Assembly: GCA_947561585.1 (NCBI GenBank)
Contig: CANNZV010002358.1
Span: forward strand, 37,898 to 101,897
Reading direction: 5' to 3'
DNA from: Caprella mutica
Taxonomy: Eukaryota > Arthropoda > Malacostraca > Amphipoda > Caprellidae
Length of the DNA stretch: 64,000 nt
Below are positions 3,635 to 64,000 of the stretch, piece by piece. Under the pieces are notes generated by a model. It searched no databases. It was given only the letters and a program-made list of their open reading frames with translations, and was not told the DNA's origin. The stretch's first letter is position 1; each line of letters starts with the position of its first letter. The position numbers and the translations under genes are program-made.

Positions 3635-3652
3635 ACTCCTCCTCACACGACA

Positions 3653-17843: not shown

Positions 17844-17860
17844 CTCCTACTCACACGACA

Positions 17861-21775: not shown

Positions 21776-21949
21776 GTTTTGAAGTATTTATTATCATTCA
21801 ATACTTAACAAACATAAACAAACAAAGCAGTTAAATTGATTTACTGTTTAACTGAATTGATATTTACTCAGGAATAATTATTCTAATTCATAAGAATAAC
21901 TTCACAGAATATAATTAGTAATTATTCAAATTGGAACAGCAACACAAGT

Positions 21950-22843
21950 TGTTTCGTTTCACATACGAATGCTATTCTTGTTTCAATTATGGAGGTTTAA
22001 ATGAATTCGAAGAATTTCAGCGAGGCGTTTACTTGACCTTAGGCAAAGTACCTGTAGAAGTACGAACAATAAATAGGAGGACTAGAACTACATACATTTC
22101 ATCAAACTTCAATAGTCCAGAAAAAAGTTATTTTATTTAGGCTAGCTGAGTAAAAAAAATTAATTTTAATCTATATGTTGGTAAAAAACAGGATTGAACA
22201 CATTAAACCGTGAAATTAATATAAGTTTTAACGCCTGCTTGAAAACAGAGTTGATCATATCACTGACGTTAAATAGAAATGAAATACAAGAGACTGAAAG
22301 AAGAAGATAGACAGAAAAGTGGTTATATGAATAAAGGAACATAGGGTAGAAATAAAGTAAACTAAATCGAATGAGCCGAACTAAATCAATCATGAAATAA
22401 CTACCACGAAAAATTAACAGAACATGAATTCCTACAGCAAAGCAATAAATTTTTAAATAAAGAATTTTCATATATAAAATATTCATGAACGAAATGAAAG
22501 TTTAAATATGCATGGTATCAAGTGAACTACAGATATCTTTATGGGCAAAAGGGCTAAAAGATAGAAAAGATGTAACCTTTTAATTCCTCTACCCAACAAC
22601 TTTAAAAGTTTAACTATTACAAATGTTAACAAACTAGAACTTACCAATTTTTAATTTAACCAGACACTTGAGTTTGGGTTACTAACAGGTTTTCGCATAC
22701 AATAACATATTAAATAATCAGCTTCAGAAATCAAAGAAAAAGTAATTAAATTTAGGAAAGGAAACTGTTATACTGTATCACCTGCTAAGGATTGAAAATT
22801 TAAATTGAACTGCTTTATTTATTTAGACATACAATACAGCACA
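21950..22843 (-). repeat. 3' LTR of the BEL/Pao element
   Basis: 894 bp, starting TGTGCTGTATTG and ending CGAAACA on the minus strand. Internal positions 22225-22345 resemble the SINE-like repeat seen at 32935 and 35335 (shared CATATCACTGACGT and ACAAG-GACTG-AAGAAG blocks), so part of this repeat is embedded in the LTR. Confidence 0.95.
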
Positions 22844-22852
22844 CTACCCCCC
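22844..22852 (-). other. Polypurine tract of the BEL/Pao element
   Basis: On the minus strand GGGGGGTAG directly precedes the 3' LTR start TGTGCTG, in the place where plus-strand DNA synthesis is primed. Confidence 0.8.
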
Positions 22853-22982
22853 GGTGCGCTAGTGCGTATTGCATTAACGCGCAACAAACTCATAAATCAC
22901 TACCAAAAAATAAACATATTACACAAAGCTTTATTAAAAAAAATACATGTAAAGGAGGAACTTATCCACACCACAATTATAA

Positions 22983-25900
22983 TTAAATGTCATCATTAAG
23001 GAGCAATACAAGGTTATGGATGGATCTGCTGAAAATTTTTCCATTCGAAAGTTTAACGTTGGCACTCCTGACCAAGCCATCAGCACTAAGCTTCACGTCA
23101 ACAATTCGACCGATAGGCCAGTTGTTCCGCTTCTCTGTTTTGCTAACCATGAGCACCACATCATTCTTAGCCAGACACTTTTTCTTGGAGGTCCATTTAT
23201 TACGCCGCTGTAAATTTTGCAAATAATCCCTTCTCCAACGAATCCAAAACTGATCAGAGAGGTACTGGATTCGTCTCCAACGTCTCTTGCCGTAAGCTAG
23301 AAGGTCTTCCTCAGAGAAGTTTTCCTCAGTAGTGTGTGGAACTTCCTTCATTGTGAGCAGAGCTGCAGGAGAAAGAGGTGCGGGATCATCGGGATAGCTA
23401 GATATCTCCCATAGGGGTGTGTTGTTTACAATGGCTGCGGACTCCTGAAGTAGCGTGCTTAACTCGTCACGGGACAGAGACCTGGTGAGCATAAGAGTAA
23501 GTGACGCATCCATGACTCTCTTAACAGAGCCTACCTTTCTCTCCCATGCTCCACCACAATGACTTGCTAGCGGAGGGTTGAATAACCACTGTATATTTCG
23601 GTTCAGAAGATCTCTTCTAATTTCTTCAACGTTTACATCAGCTGTTTTCATTTGGTTGGAAGCAGAGAGGAAGTTGGTTCCATTGTCACTACGCAAGATT
23701 CTGATTGTACCCCTCAAGGCAATGAATCGATGTAGTGCATTGCGGAAAGATGTGGTGTCCATTTGAGGCAACATCTCCAAGTGGATGGCTCTTGACACTA
23801 AACATACGCAAATAAGGACCCAGACCTTCCTCGCAGCATTGTAATTTCTGGTTGATCTCCCATCATGTACATAGTAGGGACCAAATGCATCTATACCACA
23901 ATTGGAAAACGGAGGAGTTTCTTCCAAACGATCGACTGGTAGTTCAGCCATTTGTTGCTCCATAGTCTTAGCTCGAAGTTTCTTGCACACTACACACTTG
24001 TCTAACAGACTACTTATGACCTTGCGACCCTTTACAATGTGGAAACCTTCCAATCTTACAGCACCATGAGTAAGATGCCGACCTTGGTGTTTCACACTCT
24101 CATGTAGGTGTCTAATGAGCAGGTCAGTCACTATGTGTTTTTCAGGCAAGATTATTGGATGTTTTTGGTCCGCAGGAATCGTAGAATTTTTTAGACGTCC
24201 GCCGACACGAACTAATCCCACATCATCTATGAATGGAGACAGCATGCCAAGTGCATGCCCACCTGGTAGAGCGTTGTTTGATTTCAACATTGTAACCTCT
24301 GAACCATACACGTCTTTCTGAGCTAGACGAATCAGGGTATTCCTAGCAACAGATCGCATAGCGACAGGATTGATAGGAACAATTTTACTCTTTAATTTTA
24401 TTTTTGATACCCAACTGAAGATTTTATCAAGAACCCTTAATACTCTTCTCCAATCATTTACCCTTCTGCACATTTCGATAACTTCAGTTGAAGACTCTTT
24501 TTCAGTTTTGAGAACGGTACAGACAGTTTCTTCTTCAGGTAGATTCACATCATACACATTGTCTTTCGGGAGAACAGCTGTGTGTTCCTTCAAGAAACAA
24601 GGTCCAGTGAACCATTCTGATTGAAGCAATTCTCGAGGAGAACATGGTCTAGAGCTTAGATCTGCAGGGTTTTGTTTTGTGGCAACATACTTCCATCTCT
24701 CACATTGAGAAACTGATAGAATAATGTTCACTCTCCGTGTGACGTATTTAGAGAACTTTCTATTTTGATTGGAGAGGTACCCTAGTACTATTTTACTGTC
24801 AGAGTAATAGTGAATGCTATGTATATCATAACAGAGTTCCTTCTCAATCTTTGATACAGCCAGAGATGCCTCCAGAGCAGCACAGAGCTCCAATCTTGGT
24901 ATTGAAGTTGCCGCTCTTGGCGCTACCTTTGACCCTCCAGTGACAAAGGAGACATGGATTTCGTCCTGAATAACGAACCTTAGATAAACGACGAATCCAA
25001 TGGCTACCTCCGATGCATCAGCAAATACATGAAGTTCTATACGATCACCTTGATGTTCTCTATTGGGGAAGTAGCAGCGAGGCACCTTAACTGCATTTAG
25101 ATCTAATAAAGATTCTTTCCATCTTTCCCACTCTGAAAGATGATTGAAAGGAAGCGCATCATCCCAATCACATTTCTTCAGATCTTCATCGGTACTCTTA
25201 ATCTTAGCTGGCATTATTTTGCGGCGGAAAAGATGGCCACCCAAAACTACTGGGGCCACGAAACCCAAGGGATCATATAAAGAATTAATGACCGACAGGA
25301 TGCCTCTCTTTGTGAATTCACGCAATGGAACAGAGACTTCCATGAAGAACTCGTCTTGCTGAGCATCCCACAGAATTCCCAAAGTACGTTGAGTTGGGAT
25401 CTCTTCGCATTTCAAATCGTAGCACCCTTCTACTCTTTCTGTTTCTGGGAAAGCTGCAAGCACATCAGCAGAGCTAGATAAAATTTTATGCAATCTTACA
25501 TTGTACCCAGACAAAACATTGATGGAGCTCTCGAGAGTAATTATAGCTTCATCTACACTATTAGCAGAGCCCAACCCATCGTCTACATAGAAAGCAGATT
25601 CTATGTACTTCTTCGCTGGATTTGAATCACTCTCATTTCTAACTGTATACTTTAAACAAAAATTAGCCACGGCTGGACTTGAGGTACAGCCGAATATGTG
25701 AGATTTACTTCGATACTCTACAATAGGATTACTAGGATCGTTCTTGTCAAACCAAAAAAATCTAAGGTAATTTCTGCAATCATCGGTTACCCTAAATCTA
25801 TTGTACATTGCTTCCACATCTGCTACAAAACCAATCTGACCCTGTCTAAACCGCAGCAAAACTCCCCTCAGTTGATTATTAAAATCAGGCCCTTTTAACA

Positions 25901-28676
25901 ATTTTTGATTAAGACTTGTGCCGGAGTAAACAGCTGACGCATCATAGACTAGTCTAGTTTTATTCTTTCTAGGATGAGTTACCGGGAACATAGGTATCCA
26001 CCATGCAAATCCATTTTTTGGATAGAGTTCATTTCTAGGTACTATTTCTACATAATTAGATTCAAGGCTTTTTCTCATTATCTCAACACATTGAACTAAT
26101 TTGTCGTTTTGCAATTTCAACCTATCAAAACAATTCTTGGATCTACAATAGACTTCTTTCCTATTATTCGGCAACTCTTTTTCGTTATTGAATGGAAGGG
26201 GAACTACTAAATTATTTTCATTGTCAACGTTTATATGGTCATTCATTATCATTAGGAACTTCTTATCTTCAACTGATAATCCATTTTCATTGTCGTCTAA
26301 AAACTCTTTGAATACGTTACTTTCAAGCAAACTATTTTCAAATTGTTCTTTAAGAGAAAAGTTAGTTTTTACGTTAAAGTGTTCATGACTAATACTTGTC
26401 CGCAGTACAGTACCATCCCTAGAATGCAAACCTGACCGCTGACAGACCCTTCCCACCAGAGCATACCCTAGTGCAGTGTGATGTACCCATGGAGCCTCTC
26501 TTGTAAGACATTTAGTACCCATCGCCTCAGTACAGTCACGTCCGATAAGCATCATCACCTCTGCCTGTTCGTCGAGAGGAAGGAAATGGCGTGACCACTT
26601 TCTAATAGATTTGATTTTCCGTGCCAGCAGAGGTGTAGCCACTTCATTTTTTGTATCAGGGATCGTATCATTCGTAAGTGATGGAGGTACATCGATTGTA
26701 AGTTTTTCTTTTACACCCTTGACCTGTAAACCTGATACTAACATACCCTTGGTAGTTACCGATAGACCGTTCTTACTGTTTGCGTTCATAGTGTTCAGCT
26801 TATATGAACGAATTGGGAAATCTTTACCAAAGAATTCAGGTACCTTTGGATCAATCAGAGTACAGTCACTTTGTTCGTCAATGATGACATATGCTCTTAA
26901 TGTTTTGTTTGGAACATCTTTCATAGAGATCTCAGCTAACACAGTTTTTGAACAACTTTTATTGACACTGATGTCACCACACAATGTTGTGCATAATGAT
27001 GTACCATCATCATTGAACTCCTGCCTTCGGCTCTTGAAAGGAGACCCCTTCATGATGTCACGATGCAGGGTAGTATGATGACCTTTTGAACACTTTTCGC
27101 ATGAAAGTTTCGATTTGCACTGCGCGGCAACGTGCGCACCTAGACATAGGTAGCAAAGCTTATGGTCGTATACGACTTTTCTTTTCTCTTTTTCGTTCAT
27201 ATTGAGAAATTTCTTACACTCGACAGTTTCATGGCTCGAACTTTCATGAACATAACAAAACTTCTTCGTAGAATCTTGATTGAGCTTCTCTGTAATAAGA
27301 GTTTTGAATGCTGCACGACTATCGTTCTTGGTCCTCTCTCTCGTTTCAGACGAGAATCCCCTATAGTTTGAATTGTTCAATTCTCTCACCTGTCTGCTCA
27401 GAAAATCGACAAGGACACTAAAAGGCGGATGCCCTCCACTATGCCGATCTTCATAAGCTTGGCCAGTGGATCGCCACTTATCATGGATAAATACAGGAAA
27501 CTTTCTTCTTACTAGTTCAGCTCCTGTAGAGACGTTAAGAAACTGTAGTTCTGGATTGTCGGTCATATTGAACATGATCAATCTACATAGATCAAGTAAA
27601 TCCTTCATTTGTGAATCAATATTAGGAGCCCTTATTGCCGGGAACTGATCTAGCTTAGCCAGAAGATCTCGAGAGACCTTTCCGCTAGAACCATAGCGCT
27701 CCACTAACATGTCAAACATCTGTTGTGCCTTCTCTGCATTAATTATTCCGCTTGAAGATACGAAATTAAAAATAAGGCTCTTGGGTTCACCTGCTGAATT
27801 AGATTCTAGAATCTGAAGATACTCTCTTGGGGTAACTGAAAGTGCCTCTACTCGAACGTTGATTTCTTGAATCCATGACCAGAATTTATAGGAGCATCCA
27901 CTATATAGCTCTATACTATTCTTGATGAGGTCCTTTGTTAGCAATTGCCGAGCTAGAATGCTTTGTATGTCCTCATTGTTCACTGGCAAGACGTCGCGTT
28001 GGAAGTTTGGTAATGTAGGATGCACAGGGTTCGTTGGTGCAATTTCAGCAGTTCTGTTAAACACAGGGGCTAACGGATTTAGATCACCCTGTGGAGCCGA
28101 CCTTTTGATTATCACTGGCTGCCATCCTTCACGTCTAGATTGTTCGCCATCTTGTTCATGAACAGATGGTGCATCTCCAGTTTCATCTTGACCATTGTCA
28201 GGCATAAGATCCAGAAACTCGAAGACCTTCTCTTTGCTAGTCATAGGACGCTCCGGTTCGCTGGTAGCATTGAGAGTCTTCTTGGGTATTGCTCCCTTTG
28301 CTATCTGCAGGTCGACCTGACTAATATTGTCCAGATTAGATATAACGTCTTCTCCGGCAGTGTTTAGTAGAGAGTTAACCACAGCCAGAATTTCTGAACA
28401 ATCAGCAAACAACGCATGACGTTCGGCGCTCAACTCAGCAACTCTGCTCATCGCTCCACATTTCACCATGGAAGATGATAGATTACGACTGTCATTGGCA
28501 AAATGTCGGTAGGCTAACTTCAAATTTACTGCATGAGCTTTTGCTTCAGACGTGTCTGAAATCTGATAGGCATTCATCTTCAGTAGATGAGATAAGATTT
28601 GAAAAGAAGATTCGAAGTTACTTTCCAAGATCTTGATTGAAGGTTGCCTCAATCTAGCATTAGAAACTAGTTCCAT
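22983..28676 (-). CDS. BEL/Pao Gag-Pol polyprotein
   Basis: 1897 codons from the first in-frame ATG at 28676 (MELVSNARLRQPS); the frame is open further upstream into the LTR. The N-terminal half is Gag of the DUF1759 type (ELYSGCSYKFWSWIQEIN). It is followed by Cys-His knuckles near 475-520 (CYVHESSSHETVEC, CYLCLGAHVAAQC, CEKCSKGHHTTLH). A pepsin-like protease of the DUF1758 type lies near 597, with DEQSDCTLI instead of the common DTG or DSG. RT: motif A VADVEAMYNRF, motif B FGCTSSPAVAN, and YVDD at 1030-1033. RNase H: HVFADASEVAIGF and IPRLELCAAL. Integrase: HESVKHQGRH with CVVCKKLRA, catalytic Asp1596, Asp1664 and Glu1712 (AWERK). The C-terminal DUF5641 domain includes WIRWRRDYLQNLQRR. No stops or frameshifts. 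Confidence 0.97.
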   Translation of the reverse strand: MELVSNARLRQPSIKILESNFESSFQILSHLLKMNAYQISDTSEAKAHAVNLKLAYRHFANDSRNLSSSMVKCGAMSRVAELSAERHALFADCSEILAVVNSLLNTAGEDVISNLDNISQVDLQIAKGAIPKKTLNATSEPERPMTSKEKVFEFLDLMPDNGQDETGDAPSVHEQDGEQSRREGWQPVIIKRSAPQGDLNPLAPVFNRTAEIAPTNPVHPTLPNFQRDVLPVNNEDIQSILARQLLTKDLIKNSIELYSGCSYKFWSWIQEINVRVEALSVTPREYLQILESNSAGEPKSLIFNFVSSSGIINAEKAQQMFDMLVERYGSSGKVSRDLLAKLDQFPAIRAPNIDSQMKDLLDLCRLIMFNMTDNPELQFLNVSTGAELVRRKFPVFIHDKWRSTGQAYEDRHSGGHPPFSVLVDFLSRQVRELNNSNYRGFSSETRERTKNDSRAAFKTLITEKLNQDSTKKFCYVHESSSHETVECKKFLNMNEKEKRKVVYDHKLCYLCLGAHVAAQCKSKLSCEKCSKGHHTTLHRDIMKGSPFKSRRQEFNDDGTSLCTTLCGDISVNKSCSKTVLAEISMKDVPNKTLRAYVIIDEQSDCTLIDPKVPEFFGKDFPIRSYKLNTMNANSKNGLSVTTKGMLVSGLQVKGVKEKLTIDVPPSLTNDTIPDTKNEVATPLLARKIKSIRKWSRHFLPLDEQAEVMMLIGRDCTEAMGTKCLTREAPWVHHTALGYALVGRVCQRSGLHSRDGTVLRTSISHEHFNVKTNFSLKEQFENSLLESNVFKEFLDDNENGLSVEDKKFLMIMNDHINVDNENNLVVPLPFNNEKELPNNRKEVYCRSKNCFDRLKLQNDKLVQCVEIMRKSLESNYVEIVPRNELYPKNGFAWWIPMFPVTHPRKNKTRLVYDASAVYSGTSLNQKLLKGPDFNNQLRGVLLRFRQGQIGFVADVEAMYNRFRVTDDCRNYLRFFWFDKNDPSNPIVEYRSKSHIFGCTSSPAVANFCLKYTVRNESDSNPAKKYIESAFYVDDGLGSANSVDEAIITLESSINVLSGYNVRLHKILSSSADVLAAFPETERVEGCYDLKCEEIPTQRTLGILWDAQQDEFFMEVSVPLREFTKRGILSVINSLYDPLGFVAPVVLGGHLFRRKIMPAKIKSTDEDLKKCDWDDALPFNHLSEWERWKESLLDLNAVKVPRCYFPNREHQGDRIELHVFADASEVAIGFVVYLRFVIQDEIHVSFVTGGSKVAPRAATSIPRLELCAALEASLAVSKIEKELCYDIHSIHYYSDSKIVLGYLSNQNRKFSKYVTRRVNIILSVSQCERWKYVATKQNPADLSSRPCSPRELLQSEWFTGPCFLKEHTAVLPKDNVYDVNLPEEETVCTVLKTEKESSTEVIEMCRRVNDWRRVLRVLDKIFSWVSKIKLKSKIVPINPVAMRSVARNTLIRLAQKDVYGSEVTMLKSNNALPGGHALGMLSPFIDDVGLVRVGGRLKNSTIPADQKHPIILPEKHIVTDLLIRHLHESVKHQGRHLTHGAVRLEGFHIVKGRKVISSLLDKCVVCKKLRAKTMEQQMAELPVDRLEETPPFSNCGIDAFGPYYVHDGRSTRNYNAARKVWVLICVCLVSRAIHLEMLPQMDTTSFRNALHRFIALRGTIRILRSDNGTNFLSASNQMKTADVNVEEIRRDLLNRNIQWLFNPPLASHCGGAWERKVGSVKRVMDASLTLMLTRSLSRDELSTLLQESAAIVNNTPLWEISSYPDDPAPLSPAALLTMKEVPHTTEENFSEEDLLAYGKRRWRRIQYLSDQFWIRWRRDYLQNLQRRNKWTSKKKCLAKNDVVLMVSKTEKRNNWPIGRIVDVKLSADGLVRSANVKLSNGKIFSRSIHNLVLLLNDDI

Positions 28677-28739
28677 CTTCGAACCTGTTGTTTCACTTCT
28701 GCTAGCAATCCACAAACTCTTCTGATTAAAAATTGGTAC

Positions 28740-29633
28740 TGTTTCGTTTCACATACGAATGCTATTCTTGTTTCAATTATGGAGGTTTAAATGAATTCGA
28801 AGAATTTCAGCGAGGCGTTTACTTGACCTTAGGCAAAGTACCTGTAGAAGTACGAACAATAAATAGGAGGACTAGAACTACATACATTTCATCAAACTTC
28901 AATAGTCCAGAAAAAAGTTATTTTATTTAGGCTAGCTGAGTAAAAAAAATTAATTTTAATCTATATGTTGGTAAAAAACAGGATTGAACACATTAAACCG
29001 TGAAATTAATATAAGTTTTAACGCCTGCTTGAAAACAGAGTTGATCATATCACTGACGTTAAATAGAAATGAAATACAAGAGACTGAAAGAAGAAGATAG
29101 ACAGAAAAGTGGTTATATGAATAAAGGAACATAGGGTAGAAATAAAGTAAACTAAATCGAATGAGCCGAACTAAATCAATCATGAAATAACTACCACGAA
29201 AAATTAACAGAACATGAATTCCTACAGCAAAGCAATAAATTTTTAAATAAAGAATTTTCATATATAAAATATTCATGAACGAAATGAAAGTTTAAATATG
29301 CATGGTATCAAGTGAACTACAGATATCTTTATGGGCAAAAGGGCTAAAAGATAGAAAAGATGTAACCTTTTAATTCCTCTACCCAACAACTTTAAAAGTT
29401 TAACTATTACAAATGTTAACAAACTAGAACTTACCAATTTTTAATTTAACCAGACACTTGAGTTTGGGTTACTAACAGGTTTTCGCATACAATAACATAT
29501 TAAATAATCAGCTTCAGAAATCAAAGAAAAAGTAATTAAATTTAGGAAAGGAAACTGTTATACTGTATCACCTGCTAAGGATTGAAAATTTAAATTGAAC
29601 TGCTTTATTTATTTAGACATACAATACAGCACA
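28740..29633 (-). repeat. 5' LTR of the BEL/Pao element
   Basis: 894 bp and apparently identical to 21950-22843, with constant 6790-bp spacing between matching points. A typical tRNA primer site directly inside this LTR was not obvious; the internal region starts GTACCAATTTTTAATC on the minus strand. Confidence 0.95.
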
Positions 29634-40941: not shown

Positions 40942-42597
40942 GCTTGTCGCCCACCTGATCGGAAACGACGCATCGGAACGGACACGAAGCATCAGACAAA
41001 AATCTAACCCATACATTTGAACGTGATAACGCCCACCTGCTCGGATCGGATACAAAACGACGCGTCGGATCGGAACGGAAACGACGCGGATATCTTTGGA
41101 AGAATATTTTTCTGATAGTTCTGATGCGTCCGAGAGATTGCGCATGCGCAGAAAGGTGTATGGAGAGGCTGTGATGGATATGGAAGATTGGAATAGCTGT
41201 GAATATTCTACTGCGTGATGAATATGTTGATATTAATACACAATCAATTATTTTCATTCAATTAACTTTAATGATTATAAATCAGATCACGAAAAGTTAT
41301 TGAAATAAGAAGAATAACATTTTATTTGAATAAATTTTATTTACATAAATTTTATTTACATAAATTTCATTTACATAAATTACATTTACATAAATTTCAT
41401 TTACATAAATTTCATTTACATAAATTTCATTTACATAAATTTCATTTACATAAATTTCATTTACATAAATTTCATTTACATAAATTTCATTTACATAAAT
41501 TTCATTTACATAAATTTCATTTACATAAATTTCATTTACATAAATTTCATTTACATAAATTTCATTTACATAAATTTCATTTACATAAATTTCATTTACA
41601 TAAATTTCATTTACATAAATTTCATTTACATAAATTTCATTTACATAAATTTCATTTACATAAATTTCATTTACATAAATTTCATTTACATAAATTTCAT
41701 TTACATAAATTTCATTTACATAAATTTCATTTACATAAATTTCATTTACATAAATTTCATTTACATAAATTTCATTTACATAAATTTCATTTACATAAAT
41801 TTCATTTACATAAATTTCATTTACATAAATTTCATTTACATAAATTTCATTTACATAAATTTCATTTACATAAATTTCATTTACATAAATTTCATTTACA
41901 TAAATTTCATTTACATAAATTTCATTTACATAAATTTCATTTACATAAATTTCATTTACATAAATTTCATTTACATAAATTTCATTTACATAAATTTCAT
42001 TTACATAAATTTCATTTACATAAATTTCATTTACATAAATTTCATTTACATAAATTTCATTTACATAAATTTCATTTACATAAATTTCATTTACATAAAT
42101 TTCATTCACATACATTTCATTTGAATACATTTTATTTGCATACATTTCATTTGAATACATTTTATTTGCATACATTTGTTTATATTTTTTTTTGTATACA
42201 TTTTTTTTATGTTTCTTATATAATTATTCTAAATAAAAAAAATTCACTCATATTTTTTTAAACATATTTTTCTTTATATATTTTTTTGGGGGAAAAAGCA
42301 TTAATTTTGATTGGGAAGTACACTAATATGGTAATAAATTAGAAAGATTCGAACTGAAAATTAAGATAACAACGATGCTACCGATTTTTTTTATCTAATA
42401 CCTATCGGATAAAATAGTTGTTATGATCGATAAAATTTAACTTTTAATTGTTATATTCTTATAAGTATTGTGATGTTGGCACCGTTTCCCTTCCGAAGTC
42501 GTCTGAACTGGTGTGTGTACGAGCGTCGTGTCGTGTCCGTTCCGAGACTTCGTAAGCTTCCGCGTCGTTTCCGATCCGATCATGTGGGCGACAAGCT
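40941..42597. mobile_element. PIF/Harbinger-like element filled with a satellite
   Basis: Inverted ends AGCTTGTCGCCCACCTGATC and AGCTTGTCGCCCACATGATC, both followed by CGGAAACGACGC, with a 3-bp target duplication TTA (40938-40940 and 42598-42600). The 3-bp TTA duplication fits PIF/Harbinger. Near the left end the GCCCACCTG-TCGGATCGGA motif is repeated. Most of the interior is the 15-bp array at 41325-42180, and no transposase is present. It lies inside the right TTAA of copy B, so it is younger. Confidence 0.8.
41325..42180. repeat. 15-bp satellite array
   Basis: About 53-56 copies of TTTCATTTACATAAA, essentially perfect from 41400 to 42105 with degenerate copies at both ends. Because 15 is a multiple of three and the unit lacks stops in one frame on each strand, long low-complexity frames exist on both strands; these are not genes. 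Confidence 0.97.
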
Positions 42598-55560: not shown

Positions 55561-55578
55561 TGGCGCCCAACGTGGGGC
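55561..55578 (+). other. tRNA-Lys primer-binding site
   Basis: TGGCGCCCAACGTGGGGC, an 18-base match to the 3' end of tRNA-Lys(1,2), the primer known for several retroviruses. It lies one base inside the LTR, where minus-strand synthesis starts. Confidence 0.93.
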
Positions 55579-56104
55579 CTGATGATAGTTATCGGTTAAC
55601 ATAGATTGAGAGAGAAGATATCTGGGAGAAAAATAACAAATAAGAGTCAAGAGTTAAGAGGTGAAATAAAACTCCGTATTAATATAGTGTCGTTTTAACG
55701 CGCCGAACCACTACAATATTTTGAGTGGGAGACTAGAGAGTGCAGCTAAGGCAGTGGACTCTGCAGCTTAGCACTCAACTCACGGAAACAGTTAGCAAGA
55801 TCTACAGGGAGATCTGTTACAACATCACCCGACAGAAGAGGTGATACCGGTAAGAATTTAGAAACCTACCGGACAAATAACATAGTGAACCGTACCTTAG
55901 CCTTATACGAAACGGATCTGCAAGTAAATCCGTGAGGATTGGGTCCTAATACGTATTATAAGTCCATCAAGAGAGATCGTGAGATCTGGACCAGCTTTAT
56001 TGAAAGGCTGGGCTAAGAAATACGAGTTCAGCTAAAAGAGAGAACACACTAGGAAGAACATAAGGTCAGTTACTCAAAGGTTAAAATACCTGCTCGTCAA
56101 ATTC

Positions 56105-56590
56105 TAAATACGTAAGAGCTGGGAGCCAGTACAGTGACGTTCAAGAGAGCTGACTAGATTAACAGGTGGTGTACGTAAGAGCCAGGGGCCAGTATACTGA
56201 CGATCAAAAAGAGCTGACTAAATCAACGGATTGTGTGCGTAAGAGCTTGGAGCCAGTACAGTTAAATTCAAGAGAATCAACCAGATCAGCAGAGAATTGT
56301 ACATAAGAGCTTGGAGCCAGTACAGTTCAGTTCAAGAGAAGCAACGGATCAGCAGATAATTGTACATAAGAGCTTGGAGCCAGTACAGTTAAATTCAAGA
56401 GAACCAACCAGATCAGCAGAGAATTGTACATAAGAGCTTGGAGCCAGTACAGTTCAGTTCAAGAGAAGCAACGGATCAGCAGATAATTGTACATAAGAGC
56501 TTGGAGCCAGTACAGTTAAATTCAAGAGAACCAACCAGTCCAGCAGAGAAGAGCACGTGAGAGCTTGGAGCCAGTGCAATAACCTCACAG
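56105..56590 (+). repeat. Tandem 63-64-bp repeats in the leader
   Basis: Seven to eight units, each with CGTAAGAGC or ATAAGAGCTTGGAGCCAGTA, then CAGTT..ATTCAAGAGAA and a GATCAGCAGA block. The array lies in the 1.4-kb untranslated leader between primer site and gag. The position matches that of the insulator array in Drosophila gypsy, but the sequence does not show the gypsy core motif. A packaging, splicing-enhancer or insulator role would be speculation. The rest of the leader (55579-56104 and 56591-56992) has no long frame. Confidence 0.88.
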
Positions 56591-56992
56591 GAGACAACAC
56601 AATAACAAGGCGAGGTCACTGTCAGGATATCTGGGAGAGAAGCAGCGGAGTCAGTCGTCGAATAGACTTGTTGAAGTAAGGTATCAGACTGAACAAGGCA
56701 ACAAGTGAGTACCCGTCATCTTAGACAAATATTTACCAAGGAAGCAGAGCACAGCCTCACAGGAATAATTGTGTTTATTGTAGTTACATTATAAGAGTAT
56801 ATTGTTATATTATTGTACATGGTAGAATATTGTGTCAAATAGTAGTAAATGCAAGTGTCGGTGTCAGGCAATTAATGCGTCAGAAATCAAAGATTCAATA
56901 TCGAAATAAAGAGCGCACACTAAGAACTCGTGATATAATTAATTTAATAAAAGTGTACGGGATCGAGTGTTTTAGAAATAAAATACGGCAAT

Positions 56993-58330
56993 ATGCAACA
57001 GCTGCGTCAAGTTACTATCTTAGATGGACTACCTAGGTTCTCAGGACTTCCATGTAGTGGTGAAGCTCCGGGATCTGGGCAGACCATAGATATTCGTAAC
57101 TTCCTACGCGCTGTTGATGGGCACATTGCCCTACACAACATCCAAGAGGATGGTCAGAAAGTGCGAATCTTAAATTCGCTAATTGACCCGAATGTTGGCG
57201 ACGCAAGAAAGTATATCGCTTCTTATGCGGGAAAACCGATCTCTTATAGACAATTATGTAGTGATTTGTTGAAAATATACCCGTGTTTTGCAACCTCCGA
57301 TCTAAAGGTTGCCGCAGCTGCGTTGCTAAAAAACGGGCTTGAAAATCCCGTTACAGATATAGCGCAGTTACAAGCCCAGAGTCGCTCGGTAGTAGACGCA
57401 TATCTTTGTAATAATAAAATGCGCGCCCTCCGTATAGGAGCCCATAGTGTAGTAGCAGAGCCGCGAATATTAGCTAGGGAGAGAAGAGCCAGACCCGGGG
57501 GGCCACCGCCTCAGGATGATGAAGGAGGAAGCGATGAGGAGGATCCAGATGTGGACATCAGACTGACCAGGGCGACAACACCGGAGGCGTCAACGTCAGC
57601 AAGATCACCACCACAACCTCCAGAACCGCAAGATGAGTCGGAACCCGAAGGACCAGAGGAACAACCAGCGGGAGAAGAGGAACCAACCGAGATAGAAGGG
57701 AGAGCACCTCAAATTGGGCTGGGAGAGATCCTTCAGAACCTTCTCATGCACCTGGTCATGTCTGTGCGCCTTCCAGAACCTGTATACAAAAAAGTAGCGA
57801 AGATTACTCCAGATACCACTTCCACCACTCTAATGGCGGAAGCGATAAATTGGTCAAAGAAGGAAGACGCTACGCAGGAGGCAAATCGAAGAAAAAGGAC
57901 GCCTGTAGCTACCTCAGAAGTGCTGTACGCAATGCAAGCGGAACCCAAGAGATTCAACCGTGGAGAACAGAATTGTTTCTACTGTGGGAGATCAGGTCAT
58001 TGGGCCCGCGACTGCAAAACCAAAAACAACAAAGTAAACAATTGTAATTACTGCAACAAGAAAGGTCATCAAATAAAAGACTGCAGGAAAAGGCGGAAGG
58101 ATGGAGTACCTTACTGCTACAACTGTGGGAGGCACAACCATGAGGAAGAAAAATGTCGCGCTAACTGCGGACAATGCGGTCGCAGAGGCCACACAAAGAA
58201 ACAATGTCGGACAAGGTCCGGGAACAAGCCCCAACAATATCGGTATAATGATAGGAAACGGGAGCAAATAAACCAAGTACAAGAAGAAGAAGACTCACCT
58301 GACCATATAGAGTCAGACGAGAGCGAATGA
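56993..58330 (+). CDS. gag: Gag of the errantivirus-type element
   Basis: 445 codons from ATG at 56993, ending UGA at 58328-58330. The N-terminal half resembles retroelement capsid. The middle (about 160-250) is acidic and proline-rich (EGPEEQPAGEEEPTEIEG). The C-terminal part has four CCHC zinc knuckles in a row near 328, 351, 375 and 392: CFYCGRSGHWARDC, CNYCNKKGHQIKDC, CYNCGRHNHEEEKC and CGQCGRRGHTKKQC. Four knuckles is unusual, since retroviruses normally have one or two. Gag would assemble the particle and bind genomic RNA. The reading frame continues past the stop into the protease, see 58328. Confidence 0.93.
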   Translation: MQQLRQVTILDGLPRFSGLPCSGEAPGSGQTIDIRNFLRAVDGHIALHNIQEDGQKVRILNSLIDPNVGDARKYIASYAGKPISYRQLCSDLLKIYPCFATSDLKVAAAALLKNGLENPVTDIAQLQAQSRSVVDAYLCNNKMRALRIGAHSVVAEPRILARERRARPGGPPPQDDEGGSDEEDPDVDIRLTRATTPEASTSARSPPQPPEPQDESEPEGPEEQPAGEEEPTEIEGRAPQIGLGEILQNLLMHLVMSVRLPEPVYKKVAKITPDTTSTTLMAEAINWSKKEDATQEANRRKRTPVATSEVLYAMQAEPKRFNRGEQNCFYCGRSGHWARDCKTKNNKVNNCNYCNKKGHQIKDCRKRRKDGVPYCYNCGRHNHEEEKCRANCGQCGRRGHTKKQCRTRSGNKPQQYRYNDRKREQINQVQEEEDSPDHIESDESE

Positions 58331-58333
58331 CTA
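58328..58333 (+). promoter_or_regulatory. Probable UGA-CUA stop-codon readthrough site
   Basis: Gag ends in UGA followed directly by CUA. UGA-CUA is an established high-readthrough context in alphaviruses and some cellular genes. The same frame continues 84 codons into the protease, including its catalytic Asp-Thr-Gly. The alternative is a chance sense-to-stop mutation. Confidence 0.6.
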
Positions 58334-58585
58334 AGAGGAGCACAAGACGCCGGAAGGAGGCATAGTCCCACAGTAAGAATTATCTTTAACGGACAAAAAC
58401 GAAAAGGAATTATAGATACCGGCGCAACAATAAGCCTTCTCAGCGAGAAATTGATAGATAAAATGGGTAAAGGAATTAAATTGAAACCACAAAATAGAAG
58501 AGTGTTAGACGCTCAAAGTAAAGAAATCCCAATTAAAGGAAAGTTGGAGTTAGTAATAAAAAACCCAGGGGGACAATTTCTATAG
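58331..58585 (+). CDS. Protease N-terminal part, in the gag frame
   Basis: The frame after the gag stop encodes an aspartic protease: IIDTGATISLLSEKLIDKMG with catalytic Asp-Thr-Gly at 58415-58423, then a strand-rich stretch, ending at TAG 58583-58585. The C-terminal protease strand (FQILLGMNVL, 58627-58656) lies in the -1 frame together with pol. The enzyme matures Gag and Pol. A full-length protease is therefore only made if ribosomes shift frame just before the TAG, or the copy is broken here. Confidence 0.75.
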   Translation, partial: LRGAQDAGRRHSPTVRIIFNGQKRKGIIDTGATISLLSEKLIDKMGKGIKLKPQNRRVLDAQSKEIPIKGKLELVIKNPGGQFL

Positions 58586-58602
58586 GGGAATTCCTTGTCT
58601 TC
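58558..58602 (+). promoter_or_regulatory. Candidate -1 ribosomal frameshift signal
   Basis: A-AAA-AAC at 58558-58564 is a canonical slippery heptamer and sits exactly in phase with the protease frame (codons AAA AAC). The zero-frame stop follows 18 bases later. Four bases downstream, GGGGACAA (58569-58576) can pair with TTGTCTTC (58595-58602), an 8-bp stem with two G-U pairs and an 18-base loop. A -1 slip leads into the pol frame. The stem is my own pairing and not a computed fold. Confidence 0.6.
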
Positions 58603-58641
58603 AAGAATAACAGAGACCTCAAATTTCAGATCCTACTTGGA

Positions 58642-61600
58642 ATGAACGTGTTACAGCATACTATATTAAATTTCCCAGAACAGAAGATAAACTTTACGAA
58701 TAAAGGGGAAAGTCAAGGAAAAGAACCTCAGCTAATCCAAATGAGCATGCAGATTTTATCTACTGAATTTGAATATGGAGAAACTCATGCCAAAATAAAT
58801 GTAATCGAGGAAAACAGAGAAGATAGAAGGATAGTAGAAACACCCAGGAACATACATCTCAAGGAAACTCTTAAAATTCCGGCTAATTCGGTGAATACCC
58901 TCACCTGCCATATTTCAGCAAAAGGACTACGGGATCAACAGGAGATTCTGGTCCACCGTCGTCAAACCAGGACCGGACTGGTAATTGCCAACACGGTGAC
59001 GCAGGTGGAAGGAAATAAAATTGTGATAAGTGTAGCTAACTTAATAGATCACGATGTCGTCTGGAAACAAGGATCGCTGCTATCCACAGCAGAAGTGGTA
59101 AGTTCAGAAAACATAAATCAACTAACGTCAAAGGACGTAGGTCAACCGGAGAGAGAAGGACAAGAGGAGCTGCCACCTTTAAGGATGGAAGACATAAGAT
59201 GTCCTAATAAGGAGATGAAGTCGAGGGTGCTGAAGCTACTCAACACCTACCGACAGGTATGTTGGCAGGAAGGAGAGCCTCTAGGCCATTACCTAGGAGA
59301 GCAACTGCAACTTCCACTTACGGATGACAAGATAGTCAACAAAAGACCTTATCAGATACCAGTGGCAGAACAGGAACCACTCAACAAGGAAATCAAGAAA
59401 TTATTAAAGGAGAAGATAATTCACAAGTCGAAGAGCAACTACAACGCACCGATGTTGATCGTAAAAAAGCCCGATGGAAGCATAAGACCCTGTCTTGACT
59501 ACAGGGAATTGAACAAAAAACTTGTACCCTTAAAATTCCCAACTCCCAAAATATCAGAAATTATATCGTCCATAAAACATACGACGTTCATGTCTTCTCT
59601 TGATTTGGCTAGTGCCTACAACCAGATTTCAATCTGTCCGAGAGATCAATACAAGACCGCCTTTACTGTTGGTAACTCTAAGTATGAGTATGCCCGTATG
59701 CCGTTTGGCTTGTCCACGGCACCCGGGTTCTTCAGTAGAGTGATCAACGAGGCGCTGTATGAAGTGATCGGAATGGAATGTCTGTCGTATATGGACGACA
59801 TCCTGGTCTTCTCGGAAGACGACGAGTCGCATTTATCAAAATTAGAAGAGGTACTACAAAGGTTGGCAGAAGTTAACCTAAAGATTAAAGTAAAGAAATG
59901 TGATTTCTTCACGACAGAAGTCAAATTCCTAGGATACACTATAAATCGAGACGGTCTTAAGATGAATGAAGAAAGGATCAGAAGCGTGAAAAATCTACCC
60001 TACCCAACTTCAAGGAAAACCGTCCAGTCATTCCTTGGAGCAACCAATTACTACAGGCGTTTCGTGCGACAGTTCGCACAAATAGCAGACCCTTTGTATC
60101 AGCTCCTTAAGAAGGGAGTAAAGTTTAAATGGGGAGAGGAAGAAAAGAAGGCAGTAGATACGCTGAAGGAGAAACTATGTTCTCCACCTGTATTAGCTTT
60201 TCCTGACTTCGGAAAAGACTGGTTCCTCTTCACCGATGCTTCGGACAGGGGTCTAGGTGCGGTTTTGATGCAAACCAAACAGGGGATACTGCACCCTATT
60301 TCCTTTGTATCGAAGAGTCTCAACAGCGCTCAAAGGCAGTACTCCACCACCAAAAGAGAGGCCTTAGCACTGATTTTTGCGTTGGAGCAGTTCAGGACAC
60401 TGATACTCCACTACAACGTCACTGTTTACAGTGACCATAAGCCGTTGGTAAACATCATCCACAAAACAACGAAGGATCACGCAATTAACCGTTGGATGCT
60501 CTTAGCTCAAGAGTATAAGATACAGTTAAAATACCTACCGGGTAAGGAAAACCTGTTTGCAGATGTATTATCAAGACTAGTAGAGATCGAGAAACAATGT
60601 GAGGATGTACCGTTATCGCTGGATGAAAAACTGATTGAGAAAGTGAATGCATTGGAAGAAACCCAGAACGGGAAAACAGAAACCCAGAACGGGAAAACAG
60701 AAACCCAGAACGGGGAACCAGAAACCCAGAACGGGGAAACCGAAACCAGTGACCAAGAGGAAGGAGGGTTACAATCATACCTACCACCTAAGGTAAGCTG
60801 GACGGAATTAGAACTACGAAAGGGACAGAAAAAGGATCTACAATGTCAAAGGATAAGAAAAGACATGAAAGAAACCAAAATAGACCCAACGGGTAAGATA
60901 GAGCGGTATAAAATACTAAGAGATATAATTTACGTTGTCCGTAAAATTACGCGAGCACACCATTTAACAGATACTTATCTAGTACCGTATATACCCGACA
61001 ATCTAATGCACAAAGCTTTCAGTATAGTACATAACGATACAACCGCGGGGCATAAGGGACAAAGAAGGACCATGAAGACGTTCCGGAAAAGTTTCTACAA
61101 CAAACAGGAAACTAATCTAATAGAGGGGTTTATCGCGCAATGCGAGCCGTGCTTGAGAGCGAAAACCACCCCGAAACCCATACCGCAAGGTGAATATCCC
61201 ATTCCAGGAAAACCGTTCTCAGCGGTCACAACAGATATCCTCGGACCGTTACCAATCACGGAGAAGGGTAATAGGTATATAATATCATTTAGAGATTACT
61301 GCACAAGGTATACGGTCTTATGGCCAATCCCAAATAAAGAAGTAGACAGTATTCTAGAAGCCCTGAGGATGGTGATAGCGCAATATGGATCATTCGAGGT
61401 ATTGCTAAGCGACAATGCACCTGAATATGTAGGAGAAAAAATGGCAAAATTCTGCCAGTATTATAACATCAAGAAGAAGGAAATAGTTCCGTATCATCCT
61501 CAGTCTCAAGGTTTAGCAGAACGAATAAATAGGGAGACGGCAAAATTGCTTAGGATATATACGAACACGCTAGCAGTAAACGACTGGGACGAACTAATGC

Positions 61601-62130
61601 CAGTCATTCAATTAGCAATCAATAACAGTTATAACGCTTCGTTAGGAGAAACACCTTTCTTTGCGTTATTTGGGTTCGACAGCCCGACAGAGTCGTTGGT
61701 ACCGCCGCGTCTAGATTATGGTGAAGATGATCTAGCTATTAGACTAAGGCGAGTTACGCAGATTCGGGAACATTGTAAAAAGCATCTGGAGAAAATTCAG
61801 GCAACCGTGACGCAAAATACTAATCAAAATCGAACAAACAAAGATATAACGGTAGGCAGTCGTGTATATGCTAATCTGAAAAAACAAGTTAGTCATCGAA
61901 AACTAGATATGCCAATAACAGGACCGTTCGTTGTCGCGGACAAACAAGGAAACCGGATAAAAATACGAAAAGTAGGATCAACGGAGACATACGTGATCCA
62001 TCCGGACAAATTAATTGCCAGACATGCGATACAAATAAAACCCGATGAAGTAGAGATAGAAGCTGACAAAGGAGTAAAAACGATAACCAAGCCTAAAATG
62101 AAGCGAACGTATAACTTAAGGCCCCGGTAA
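58642..62130 (+). CDS. pol: Pol: reverse transcriptase, RNase H and integrase
   Basis: 1162 codons from the first ATG, but the frame is open upstream and is presumably entered by frameshifting near 58558, so the ATG is not the true start. Numbered from 58642: end of protease (ILLGMNVL); RT motif A with Asp321 in LDLASAYNQI; motif B MPFGLSTAPGFF; YMDD at 383-386; RNase H starting FTDASDRGLGAVL near 531, with YSDHKPLV. A linker near 672-700 has four tandem ETQNGK/E heptads. Integrase: HHCC finger (HNDTTAGHKGQ and CEPCLRAK), Asp865, Asp924 and Glu960, exactly D,D-35-E. The C-terminal tail is basic (MKRTYNLRPR). No stops inside, so pol looks intact. Confidence 0.96.
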   Translation: MNVLQHTILNFPEQKINFTNKGESQGKEPQLIQMSMQILSTEFEYGETHAKINVIEENREDRRIVETPRNIHLKETLKIPANSVNTLTCHISAKGLRDQQEILVHRRQTRTGLVIANTVTQVEGNKIVISVANLIDHDVVWKQGSLLSTAEVVSSENINQLTSKDVGQPEREGQEELPPLRMEDIRCPNKEMKSRVLKLLNTYRQVCWQEGEPLGHYLGEQLQLPLTDDKIVNKRPYQIPVAEQEPLNKEIKKLLKEKIIHKSKSNYNAPMLIVKKPDGSIRPCLDYRELNKKLVPLKFPTPKISEIISSIKHTTFMSSLDLASAYNQISICPRDQYKTAFTVGNSKYEYARMPFGLSTAPGFFSRVINEALYEVIGMECLSYMDDILVFSEDDESHLSKLEEVLQRLAEVNLKIKVKKCDFFTTEVKFLGYTINRDGLKMNEERIRSVKNLPYPTSRKTVQSFLGATNYYRRFVRQFAQIADPLYQLLKKGVKFKWGEEEKKAVDTLKEKLCSPPVLAFPDFGKDWFLFTDASDRGLGAVLMQTKQGILHPISFVSKSLNSAQRQYSTTKREALALIFALEQFRTLILHYNVTVYSDHKPLVNIIHKTTKDHAINRWMLLAQEYKIQLKYLPGKENLFADVLSRLVEIEKQCEDVPLSLDEKLIEKVNALEETQNGKTETQNGKTETQNGEPETQNGETETSDQEEGGLQSYLPPKVSWTELELRKGQKKDLQCQRIRKDMKETKIDPTGKIERYKILRDIIYVVRKITRAHHLTDTYLVPYIPDNLMHKAFSIVHNDTTAGHKGQRRTMKTFRKSFYNKQETNLIEGFIAQCEPCLRAKTTPKPIPQGEYPIPGKPFSAVTTDILGPLPITEKGNRYIISFRDYCTRYTVLWPIPNKEVDSILEALRMVIAQYGSFEVLLSDNAPEYVGEKMAKFCQYYNIKKKEIVPYHPQSQGLAERINRETAKLLRIYTNTLAVNDWDELMPVIQLAINNSYNASLGETPFFALFGFDSPTESLVPPRLDYGEDDLAIRLRRVTQIREHCKKHLEKIQATVTQNTNQNRTNKDITVGSRVYANLKKQVSHRKLDMPITGPFVVADKQGNRIKIRKVGSTETYVIHPDKLIARHAIQIKPDEVEIEADKGVKTITKPKMKRTYNLRPR
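60655..60747 (+). repeat. 21-bp in-frame repeat in the pol linker
   Basis: Four copies of a 21-bp unit (GAAACCCAGAACGGG plus six bases) encode tandem ETQNG heptads between RNase H and integrase. Unit number probably varies between copies. Confidence 0.85.
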
Positions 62131-62241
62131 TGTAACGGGAGTAAATTTAATGTATAAGAAATAATGTATTGAAAATAGAATGTAAGTTACTATAAAGATA
62201 TATATATATATGTACTAGATTTAACACATGTGGACCTTTCA

Positions 62242-62243
62242 GT
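62242..62243 (+). promoter_or_regulatory. Putative env splice acceptor
   Basis: CCTTTCAG ends at 62241, immediately before the sequence encoding a hydrophobic signal-like stretch that lacks its own upstream ATG. Insect errantiviruses make env from a spliced RNA whose first codons come from a 5' exon. The donor was not identified. Confidence 0.5.
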
Positions 62244-64000
62244 GTGGGCGCCCCAGGCCATCGCCGCGCTCAGCTGTGTCTGTTGTGCAACCCTGGCGGC
62301 AGACGTAGTACCTATGTCAGCTTGGCAGTGGGACGGATCGGCCAGGACGGAAGGTGTGATACTTTTAGCTCCAATTCAATTAAAATTCGTCACAGATTTG
62401 TGCAAACAGATAATTCTGAACCTCCATTTAACACACAAAACCATAGAGTCTCTTCTTGGTTCGATGGTTCTAGGTAGTGTTAAGGAGAATGATCTTTTTG
62501 TTCGTAGAATCTCATTTGTACTTTTTAAGATAGAAATGTCTTACATAGAAATTGTAGATTATCTAAATTTCAATATGCTGTGTTATAGTTTACACGACGA
62601 AATAAACGCAAATTATGGAAAACTGCAACAAAGACTGAACAAAACCTGGACTATGTTGGACAACGAAAATAATGACATTCCAAATAACGTAGCCTCGTAT
62701 CTAGGTGAAGCCAGACCGCAGGGTATAGTTAATCCTAATGACCCACACGCTTTTGTAGGACTGGGAGTTGGATTAGCAGTAGGAGCAATAGGGGGAGGAG
62801 TAGTCGGATCTCTATTTGGAGGGACCGATCACACTGACGAGATTAAAACTATAAATGAAAATATCTCAAAGGTAGATAAAAAGATTCATATCACTAATAG
62901 CCGTATTGACATGCTAGCTAAGAATACGTCAGATTCGATTAGAGACGTAAAAGTGATCTTGAAAAATTTAAACAATGCTCTAGAAAATAGTGAACGTAGA
63001 CAGATGTTTAACTGGAACTTCGACCAGTTGAAACAGGCTTGTCTCCAAGCTATAATGCTCATTCGAATAACAGAGAATACATTGACGTTACTTAGATCGG
63101 GAAACTTGAATACCGTTATGTTAGACGTTAAAACAATTAGAGCAGTGGTAGAGGAAGGACTCAAGTTTTATCCAGAGTTAGAATTTCCCATAGAAAATAT
63201 AGATAGATTCACGATAGATCAATTACTTGCTTACATAACTATTAAGAATCTAGGAAGACTAGAATTCATGGCACAAATCCCATTAGTATATAAACAGAAA
63301 TATAAGGTAGTAACGTTAACTCCTCACCCAATGAAGTTGGAAAACAGGTTAGTCATACCAATCGTTCAGAACACGTTTTTGTTTGATAGTAAACAGTATA
63401 TAAGTACAGACAAGACAAACTTATATTCACTAGATAATCAAACGCATATATTACGAACTACAGAACCAGCGTGGATATTTAATCACAGTTCATGTGAATT
63501 AGCTGCATTTTTAGGTGACGTCGAAACAATAGTTCAACTTTGTAACTTTAAGAAATTAGGAACAAAAGATGGATTTTACTTGGAAAGCACAACAACTAAC
63601 CGACTAATATACACTGTGACTAGAATGCCTATTGAGTTAGAATGTCCAACAGGTATAGTGAGAGATAACTTATTAGGGTTACATTACGTGCCACTTAACT
63701 GTGACATAAAAACTGAGCAGGTAACATGGCATGCAAAACTGAGACATGAAATAGATATTGAACGTTTAGTGACAGAGAAGAGGGAAAACCCGTTTGATAT
63801 CACAGACTTACCAATTATAAATATAAATGAAAGTTTCACAGTCCATGAAACTATAAAAGAATTGATAGATGAATTACCATCCAATAATCCATTCGTAATA
63901 CCTTTTGATGACATGGATCTCACCATCGAAGAAGTACAAACATATTCGATAGTAACACAAGGAAGTTTATTAGTATTGGTAATCATAAATTTGTTATTGG
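62242..64000 (+). CDS. env: Env-like membrane fusion protein (3' end outside window)
   Basis: An unbroken frame of about 586 codons from 62242 to the window edge (open from 62179; first internal ATG at 62314). Visible in order: a hydrophobic signal-like segment (AIAALSCVCCATLAADVV) before the first in-frame ATG, implying a spliced start; a glycine-rich, fusion-peptide-like stretch GLGVGLAVGAIGGGVVGSLF at 62758-62817; a long heptad-repeat helical region (ISKVDKK to LNNALENSERR); several Asn-X-Ser/Thr sites; and a hydrophobic segment from about 63961 that is probably the membrane anchor, cut by the window. The order resembles the F-type envelope proteins of errantiviruses and baculoviruses. No canonical RxxR furin site was seen just ahead of the glycine-rich segment. 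Stated from motif layout, not from a database match. Confidence 0.8.
   Translation, partial: MWAPQAIAALSCVCCATLAADVVPMSAWQWDGSARTEGVILLAPIQLKFVTDLCKQIILNLHLTHKTIESLLGSMVLGSVKENDLFVRRISFVLFKIEMSYIEIVDYLNFNMLCYSLHDEINANYGKLQQRLNKTWTMLDNENNDIPNNVASYLGEARPQGIVNPNDPHAFVGLGVGLAVGAIGGGVVGSLFGGTDHTDEIKTINENISKVDKKIHITNSRIDMLAKNTSDSIRDVKVILKNLNNALENSERRQMFNWNFDQLKQACLQAIMLIRITENTLTLLRSGNLNTVMLDVKTIRAVVEEGLKFYPELEFPIENIDRFTIDQLLAYITIKNLGRLEFMAQIPLVYKQKYKVVTLTPHPMKLENRLVIPIVQNTFLFDSKQYISTDKTNLYSLDNQTHILRTTEPAWIFNHSSCELAAFLGDVETIVQLCNFKKLGTKDGFYLESTTTNRLIYTVTRMPIELECPTGIVRDNLLGLHYVPLNCDIKTEQVTWHAKLRHEIDIERLVTEKRENPFDITDLPIININESFTVHETIKELIDELPSNNPFVIPFDDMDLTIEEVQTYSIVTQGSLLVLVIINLLL

What the first reader, a model, noticed from the sequence alone, without database searches (positions are those of the whole stretch)
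58328..58602. Two stacked recoding signals in one retroelement: UGA readthrough, then -1 frameshift inside the protease
Gag ends UGA-CUA and protease follows in the same frame. The protease frame then meets TAG six codons after an in-phase A-AAA-AAC heptamer, with a plausible stem-loop four bases downstream, and pol lies precisely in the -1 frame. Known elements usually use one device at gag-pol and one at most at pro-pol. A slip site within the protease fold, coupled to stop-codon readthrough, would set two successive ratios (Gag : truncated protease : full Pol). One of the two sites could instead be a mutation; each independently matches a known signal, which is what makes the coincidence worth testing.
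Basis: partly seen in the sequence, partly recalled or inferred. Interest (0 to 1): 0.88.

Follow-up and report, generated by a model that had tools for sequence, protein, structure and literature searches.

The report
One readthrough stop, one private lesion
A retrovirus-like element in an unnamed, apparently animal genome seems to make its enzymes by reading through a leaky UGA stop codon that its diverged sister families keep, while the supposed second recoding signal is a change seen in this one copy, whose protease gene it breaks.

Summary
The letters are as reported: gag ends UGA-CUA (58328), protease follows in frame, an in-phase A-AAA-AAC lies at 58558, TAG at 58583, pol in -1. They are not two stacked signals. 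In 39 other copies from the same genome (all that one search scored besides this one), UGA-CUA is present in 39, the heptamer in none, and protease and pol share gag's frame in 38; the 39th is broken elsewhere. This copy carries a private length change inside the protease, and the heptamer lies in the same short stretch, so one event probably made both. The hairpin is no stabler than shuffles. The first site is real: in diverged families of that genome (protease 35-53% identical) the gag stop is UGA-CUA in frame with protease in 22 of 22 and 16 of 18 junctions; a fourth family has UGA-CAC in 4 of 5. Flanks match at only 17-27 of 69 positions. Best reading: a clade of Ty3/gypsy-like elements makes Gag-Pol by UGA readthrough (inferred; no translation measured), and this copy's protease is broken.

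The parts
55561..55579 (+). primer-binding-site-like 19-mer after the presumed 5' LTR (looks like a tRNA-Lys site; the label is recalled, not tested)
   Evidence: read
56109..56575 (+). tandem repeats of about 64/127 bp in the untranslated leader
56951..58330 (+). gag frame (stop to stop) with CCHC zinc knuckles, ending in UGA
   Evidence: 459 codons; Pfam zf-CCHC 3e-09, three stretches at a loose cut-off; relative P0055, 41% over 343 positions
58328..58333 (+). UGA-CUA gag stop: conserved readthrough-type hexamer
   Evidence: 39 of 39 sister junctions; family C 22 of 22, family B 16 of 18, further family A copies 13 of 14
58331..58585 (+). N-terminal half of protease (active-site DTGA) in gag's frame, ending early at TAG 58583
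   Evidence: (gag-asp_proteas 2.1e-06)
58550..58605 (+). stretch holding this copy's private length change (501 against 499 bases aligned); in 58200-58549 and 58606-58700 the window has no base that differs from all 38 copies of 499 bases
58558..58564 (+). A-AAA-AAC, in phase; absent from all 39 sister junctions examined; lies inside the stretch of the private change
58569..58602 (+). weak hairpin downstream of the heptamer, no more stable than shuffles
58537..62130 (+). pol frame: C-terminal half of protease, reverse transcriptase, RNase H, integrase
62179..64000 (+). env-like ORF (so called from its place and a glycine-rich stretch), open to the end of the contig
   Evidence: no Pfam family at its cut-off and no PDB match; contig ends with the window

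Best explanation
This is one copy of a high-copy Ty3/gypsy-type retroelement with an env-like ORF. In the family, gag and one continuous pro-pol frame are separated only by a leaky UGA-CUA stop. Ribosomes that read through the UGA make Gag-Pro-Pol and the rest make Gag (inferred from anatomy and conservation; no translation was measured). In this copy a small private length change inside the protease, not a multiple of three, ends the readthrough product at a TAG halfway through the enzyme and leaves the rest of pol out of frame. The A-AAA-AAC heptamer lies within the same short stretch and is most simply a by-product of that change (inferred), not a programmed signal.
For: Second site private: heptamer in 0 of 39 other junctions, protease and pol in gag's frame in 38 of 39; 38 copies align over 499 bases, the window and one other over 501, and that other copy has a different frame break nearer the UGA. 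No window base differs from all 38 same-length copies in the 350 bases before or the 95 bases after the stretch. In one search the window copy's protease frame is 84 codons, the shortest of the 59 places (window included) that match the whole query at 95% or more; 17 of the 59 keep at least 1197 codons open (hand count). In databases, 24 of 29 related pol proteins carry this protease segment in one ORF, 23 of the 24 with one spacing; a slip product would be one residue longer. Hairpin z-scores +1.10 to +1.72. First site real: UGA-CUA is the first in-frame stop before protease in family C 22 of 22, family B 16 of 18, further family A 13 of 14, with gag's zinc-knuckle frame open up to the stop in 21, 15 and 12 of these loci. 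Hexamer 6 of 6 alike between A, B and C, flanks 17, 24 and 27 of 69. UGA-CUA is a listed type II readthrough context (PMC3542737, passages), and UGA-CUAG drives readthrough in mammalian reporters (PMC4132726, passages).
Against: No ribosome profiling or reporter data exist here. No 3' stem-loop stronger than chance was found in one representative each of four families (z -1.84 to +1.18 over five stretches each) or in the window (z -0.14), although type II sites often have one. Family D has UGA-CAC (4 of 5). The -1 frame between heptamer and TAG encodes residues as protease-like as the 0 frame (7.4 against 7.7 bits; 1 of 2238 wrong-frame peptides reaches either), so the residues alone did not decide. 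Conservation within family A means little by itself, since its copies differ by a mean of 2.7 bases in 499. That one event made heptamer and frame break is inferred. An assembly error in this copy cannot be told from a true mutation.
Confidence: 0.9

Rival explanations
1. Two stacked programmed signals: UGA-CUA readthrough, then -1 frameshifting at A-AAA-AAC inside the protease.
For: In-phase canonical heptamer, 0-frame stop six codons on, pol exactly in -1; the -1 peptide is protease-like.
Against: Heptamer in 0 of 39 sister copies and one continuous frame in 38 of 39; hairpin weaker than most shuffles; product one residue longer than 23 of 24 relatives allow.
Confidence: 0.02
2. The lesion made its own weak suppressor: the change that broke the frame also left an in-phase slippery heptamer, so this copy may still make traces of Pol by -1 slipping.
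For: Heptamer and frame break are both private and lie in the same short stretch; AAAAAAC is a known retroviral slip site (table passages of PMC3835772).
Against: No hairpin better than chance; Pol would arise only after readthrough, as a product of two rates, with an altered protease segment.
Confidence: 0.06
3. The UGA is the mutation and the slip is the real device.
For: A nonsense mutation could in principle arise at a sense codon; no call supports it here.
Against: UGA-CUA in 39 of 39 sister junctions and in families B and C; heptamer in 0 of 39.
Confidence: 0.01
4. The frame break is an assembly error at this locus.
For: It is seen in 1 of 40 scored copies; homopolymer runs lie in the stretch.
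Against: Interrupted copies are common here: 41 of the 58 other family A places have an open frame under 1197 codons, contig ends included (hand count), and two Copia copies in the window differ by 13 gap openings in 4.2 kb.
Confidence: 0.15

Closest known systems
Type II stop-codon readthrough (UGA-CGG or UGA-CUA, e.g. alphaviruses, tobraviruses, coltiviruses; UGA-CUAG in mammalian OPRL1, OPRK1, MAPK10, AQP4)
   Same: Same stop and 3' triplet as the UGA-CUA class; a G follows in 36 of the 38 family B and C loci that have the hexamer.
   Different: In the passages seen those are viral replicase or other viral genes and cellular extensions, not a retroelement gag-pol junction; no extended 3' stem-loop was detected here.
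Gammaretrovirus and epsilonretrovirus gag-pol readthrough
   Same: Gag and pol in one frame separated by a leaky stop.
   Different: Those use UAG (type III), with a compact pseudoknot in gammaretroviruses and an extended stem-loop in epsilonretroviruses (PMC3542737 table passage); here UGA-CUA and no structure detected.
Tca2 of Candida albicans (gag-UGA-pol)
   Same: UGA between gag and pol in an LTR retrotransposon (PMC2194720, abstract).
   Different: A fungal element whose junction sequence did not direct readthrough in S. cerevisiae.
Double recoding: betaretroviruses and deltaretroviruses (gag-pro and pro-pol frameshifts); a giant-virus release-factor gene with readthrough and frameshifting
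   Same: Two recoding events in one gene or transcript (PMC3835772 passages; PMC5009743 passage); the same AAAAAAC heptamer in MMTV, HTLV and BLV.
   Different: The retroviral sites lie at gene junctions; here the heptamer lies inside the protease and is private to one copy.

Membership tests
Ty3/gypsy (Metaviridae) element | gag with CCHC; protease, RT, RNase H, integrase in that order | tested here: met
   Pfam; listed relatives of the clade 40-51% identical with these domains; best solved match to the pol profile is Ty3
Ty3/gypsy (Metaviridae) element | two long terminal repeats | not testable with these tools
   contig ends at the window end, inside the env-like ORF
Errantivirus-like (insect retrovirus-like) element | env gene of errantiviral type | tested here: inconclusive
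   long env-like ORF but no Pfam family at its cut-off and no PDB match
Errantivirus-like (insect retrovirus-like) element | -1 frameshift between gag and pol (recalled feature) | tested here: not met
   gag and pro-pol share one frame in 38 of 39 sister copies
Type II stop-codon readthrough | UGA followed by CUA or CGG, with an extension in frame | tested here: met
Type II stop-codon readthrough | conservation of the hexamer beyond its flanks | tested here: met
   hexamer 6 of 6 between families A, B, C; flanks 17, 24 and 27 of 69, no chance expectation computed
Type II stop-codon readthrough | 3' extended stem-loop | tested here: inconclusive
   z -1.84 to +1.18 in one representative of each of four families; a structure was not needed in the mammalian cases
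Type II stop-codon readthrough | measured readthrough product | not testable with these tools
   no translation data
-1 programmed frameshifting | in-phase X-XXY-YYZ before the 0-frame stop, next ORF in -1 | tested here: met
-1 programmed frameshifting | downstream stimulatory structure beyond chance | tested here: not met
   hairpins only; pseudoknots were not searched
-1 programmed frameshifting | site and frames conserved in other copies | tested here: not met
   heptamer in 0 of 39, split frame in 1 of 39 and that one elsewhere

The most novel reading that the evidence does not exclude
A clade of Ty3/gypsy-like animal elements with an env-like ORF uses the UGA-CUA(G) hexamer, with no detectable 3' RNA structure, as its gag-pol device. 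It has kept the hexamer while the surrounding sequence turned over almost completely, a use of the type II readthrough motif that I did not find described for retroelements.
Probability: 0.5. Interest if true: 0.45.

Novelty: new member of a known kind. Interest (0 to 1): 0.3.

Why it matters
It removes a false 'double recoding' element: sister copies in the same genome show that the slip site and the frame break are one copy's accident. It leaves a clean, testable case in which short-hexamer stop-codon readthrough seems to set the Gag to Pol ratio across several diverged retroelement families of one genome. That would be a natural series for asking how much of UGA-CUA readthrough lies in the hexamer itself.

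Tried and rejected
Viral-contig scans with the pol protein and with a 15-row profile gave no relatives. The gag search found one relative, whose protein ends before the junction can be judged. Residue scores between heptamer and TAG did not discriminate between the frames, so an earlier lean on a 5.4 against 1.3 bit gain was dropped as weak. Rfam at its gathering scores and ARAGORN found nothing in the window. Structure 3' of the UGA was not beyond chance. Literature: searches for UGA CUA with readthrough and retrotransposon, for readthrough and frameshifting with gag-pro-pol and for UGA, stop codon, gag, pol, readthrough and Metaviridae returned nothing; some searches returned listings. Of the papers listed I opened six: PMC5009743 (passages and section 45), PMC12440569 (outline and passages; not this lineage, no env there), PMC4132726, PMC3542737 and PMC3835772 (passages), PMC2194720 (abstract and outline). 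Not done: structure prediction of the protease, because its two halves would have had to be joined.

Full report
What was checked. Gag ends in UGA at 58328-58330 followed by CUA. The same frame runs on through the first half of a retropepsin-type protease to TAG at 58583. A-AAA-AAC at 58558-58564 is in phase six sense codons before that TAG. The rest of the protease and pol (58537-62130) lie in the -1 frame. Pfam sees the protease N-half, RT, RNase H and integrase. The element continues into an env-like ORF that runs off the contig, which ends exactly at the window end.

Is the second signal more than chance? Weakly at best. In this A-rich element an in-phase slippery heptamer occurs in 106 of 2200 48-base coding windows, and the identical heptamer lies in phase inside gag at 57328. 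The downstream hairpin is less stable than most dinucleotide shuffles (z +1.20, +1.10, +1.72; 179, 176 and 196 of 200 shuffles at least as stable). Pseudoknots were not searched.

Relatives from protein databases. I took 29 pol proteins as the clade: 26 that score 660 bits or more, and P0005, P0012 and P0015, listed only (together P0001-P0015 and P0056-P0069). Nineteen of the 29 hold the active site and the rest of protease in one ORF. Five more start after the active site but still span the segment where the window changes frame, and five start later and say nothing. In 23 of those 24 the segment has one fixed spacing; P0066 is longer. A slip at the heptamer would give the window one residue more. 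Scored piece by piece, the 0 frame stays protease-like to the residue before the last codon ahead of the TAG (50.7 to 56.6 bits), while reading pol from the heptamer adds one bit (42.4 to 43.4). The residues themselves do not decide it: both frames encode P-x-G-x-hydrophobic (7.7 and 7.4 bits, each reached by 1 of 2238 wrong-frame peptides). In the 15-row pol alignment this copy departs from 14 of 205 columns that are invariant in the other rows, more than any other row (0 to 10); most of these are like-for-like changes, and it is also one of the more distant rows.

Other copies in the same genome. After repeated busy answers, searched the 903-Mb genome with window 58200-58700. It scored 40 of 62 candidates, at 99-100% identity. 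The window and one other copy align over 501 bases and 38 copies over 499. I fetched all 39 others. UGA-CUA: 39 of 39. A-AAA-AAC: 0 of 39, there or elsewhere in those stretches. Protease and pol in gag's frame: 38 of 39; the exception has a different frame break nearer the UGA. Two copies have one extra stop in gag. Each of the 39 does have one other in-phase canonical heptamer, AAATTTC, after the UGA; in the window one lies in pol's open frame at 58668, with no split to serve. No window base differs from all 38 same-length copies in the 350 bases before or the 95 bases after the stretch 58550-58605. Heptamer and frame break are thus both private to this copy and sit in the same few dozen bases; one event is the simplest cause (inferred).

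How ordinary is such damage? In one search (150 of 416 candidates scored) 59 places, window included, match the whole protease query at 95% or more. Of these, 17 keep a frame of at least 1197 codons and the window keeps 84, the shortest; the other 41 are interrupted or cut by contig ends (hand count). Two Copia copies in the window are 96.1% alike with 13 gap openings in 4.2 kb, with changes of frame between them.

The first signal is conserved. Within family A conservation says little, since its copies are nearly identical (mean 2.7 mismatches in 499). But one search also found diverged families in the same genome. I fetched 60 further loci, chosen by me to span the list and none of them among the 40; the other rows were not examined in this way. 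Clustered by DNA: family C (protease 35-40% identical to the window's) has UGA-CUA as the first in-frame stop upstream of protease in 22 of 22 (UGA-CUA-G in 20). Family B (43-53%) has it in 16 of 18; the two exceptions have another stop nearer the protease, and one of them has the hexamer further upstream, the other has none in reach. Further family A copies: 13 of 14; the exception has another stop nearer the protease and the hexamer upstream. One family A fragment (L131) had no stop in reach. Family D (38-39%): UGA-CAC in 4 of 5, UGA-AUU in the fifth. The gag zinc-knuckle frame is open up to the stop in 21 (C), 15 (B), 12 (A) and 4 (D) of these loci. Between families A, B and C the hexamer is 6 of 6 alike while the 69 flanking positions match at 17 (A-B), 24 (A-C) and 27 (B-C); no chance expectation was computed. 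An island of that kind points to selection on the hexamer itself (inferred). No 3' structure stood out in one representative of each family (z -1.84 to +1.18 over five stretches each).

How it most likely works. Shown: one continuous pro-pol frame after an in-frame UGA-CUA in the family, its conservation between families, and the loss of frame in this copy. Inferred: that the UGA is read through at a few per cent to make Gag-Pro-Pol. The inference rests on the motif's known behaviour. UGA-CUA is a type II context in alphaviruses (PMC3542737, passages), and UGA-CUAG gave efficient readthrough in mammalian reporters with 12 bases 3' of the stop enough for maximal readthrough (PMC4132726, passages). 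In this copy the readthrough product stops halfway through protease.

Comparison with what is known. Retroviral gag-pol readthrough is listed as UAG type III; beta- and deltaretroviruses use two frameshifts (PMC3835772, passages); a giant-virus gene combines readthrough and frameshifting (PMC5009743, passage). Tca2 has gag-UGA-pol, but its junction did not direct readthrough in S. cerevisiae (PMC2194720, abstract). I found no paper on UGA-CUA at a retroelement gag-pol junction (searches returned none), but the library lacks most subscription journals, so this is a weak statement. The profile of the protease has its best solved relatives in retroviral-like aspartic protease 1 and DDI1.

Verdict. 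The stacked pair is not a feature of the element. The readthrough hexamer is, and it is a new member of a known kind.

Noticed in passing
window 57328-57334: An identical in-phase A-AAA-AAC inside gag; a useful control for how often such heptamers arise here.
   Followed up: partly
window 56109-56575: The element's leader carries 64/127-bp tandem repeats before gag.
   Followed up: no
window 60657-60747: 21-bp tandem repeat (4.3 copies) inside pol, between RNase H and integrase, coding for a QNGKTET-like repeat.
   Followed up: no
window 62179-64000: Env-like ORF with a glycine-rich, fusion-peptide-like stretch (likeness recalled), but no Pfam family at its cut-off and no PDB match.
   Followed up: partly
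window 3553-7800 and 17761-22000, minus strand: Two Copia copies 96.1% identical, with 13 gap openings and frame changes between them.
   Followed up: partly
window 21950-29039, minus strand: BEL/Pao element with a single 1921-codon ORF and direct repeats identical over the 300 bases compared.
   Followed up: partly
window 110-3532: 735-codon RT ORF (1054-3261) with long direct repeats 2708-2709 bp apart around it; looks like a Penelope-like element (label recalled).
   Followed up: no
window 41314-42177: 15-bp satellite (57.5 copies) that happens to be open in several frames on both strands.
   Followed up: no
L098, L117, L118, L129: Family D has UGA-CAC instead of UGA-CUA at the same gag-protease boundary, still in frame: a natural contrast for readthrough tests.
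   Followed up: partly
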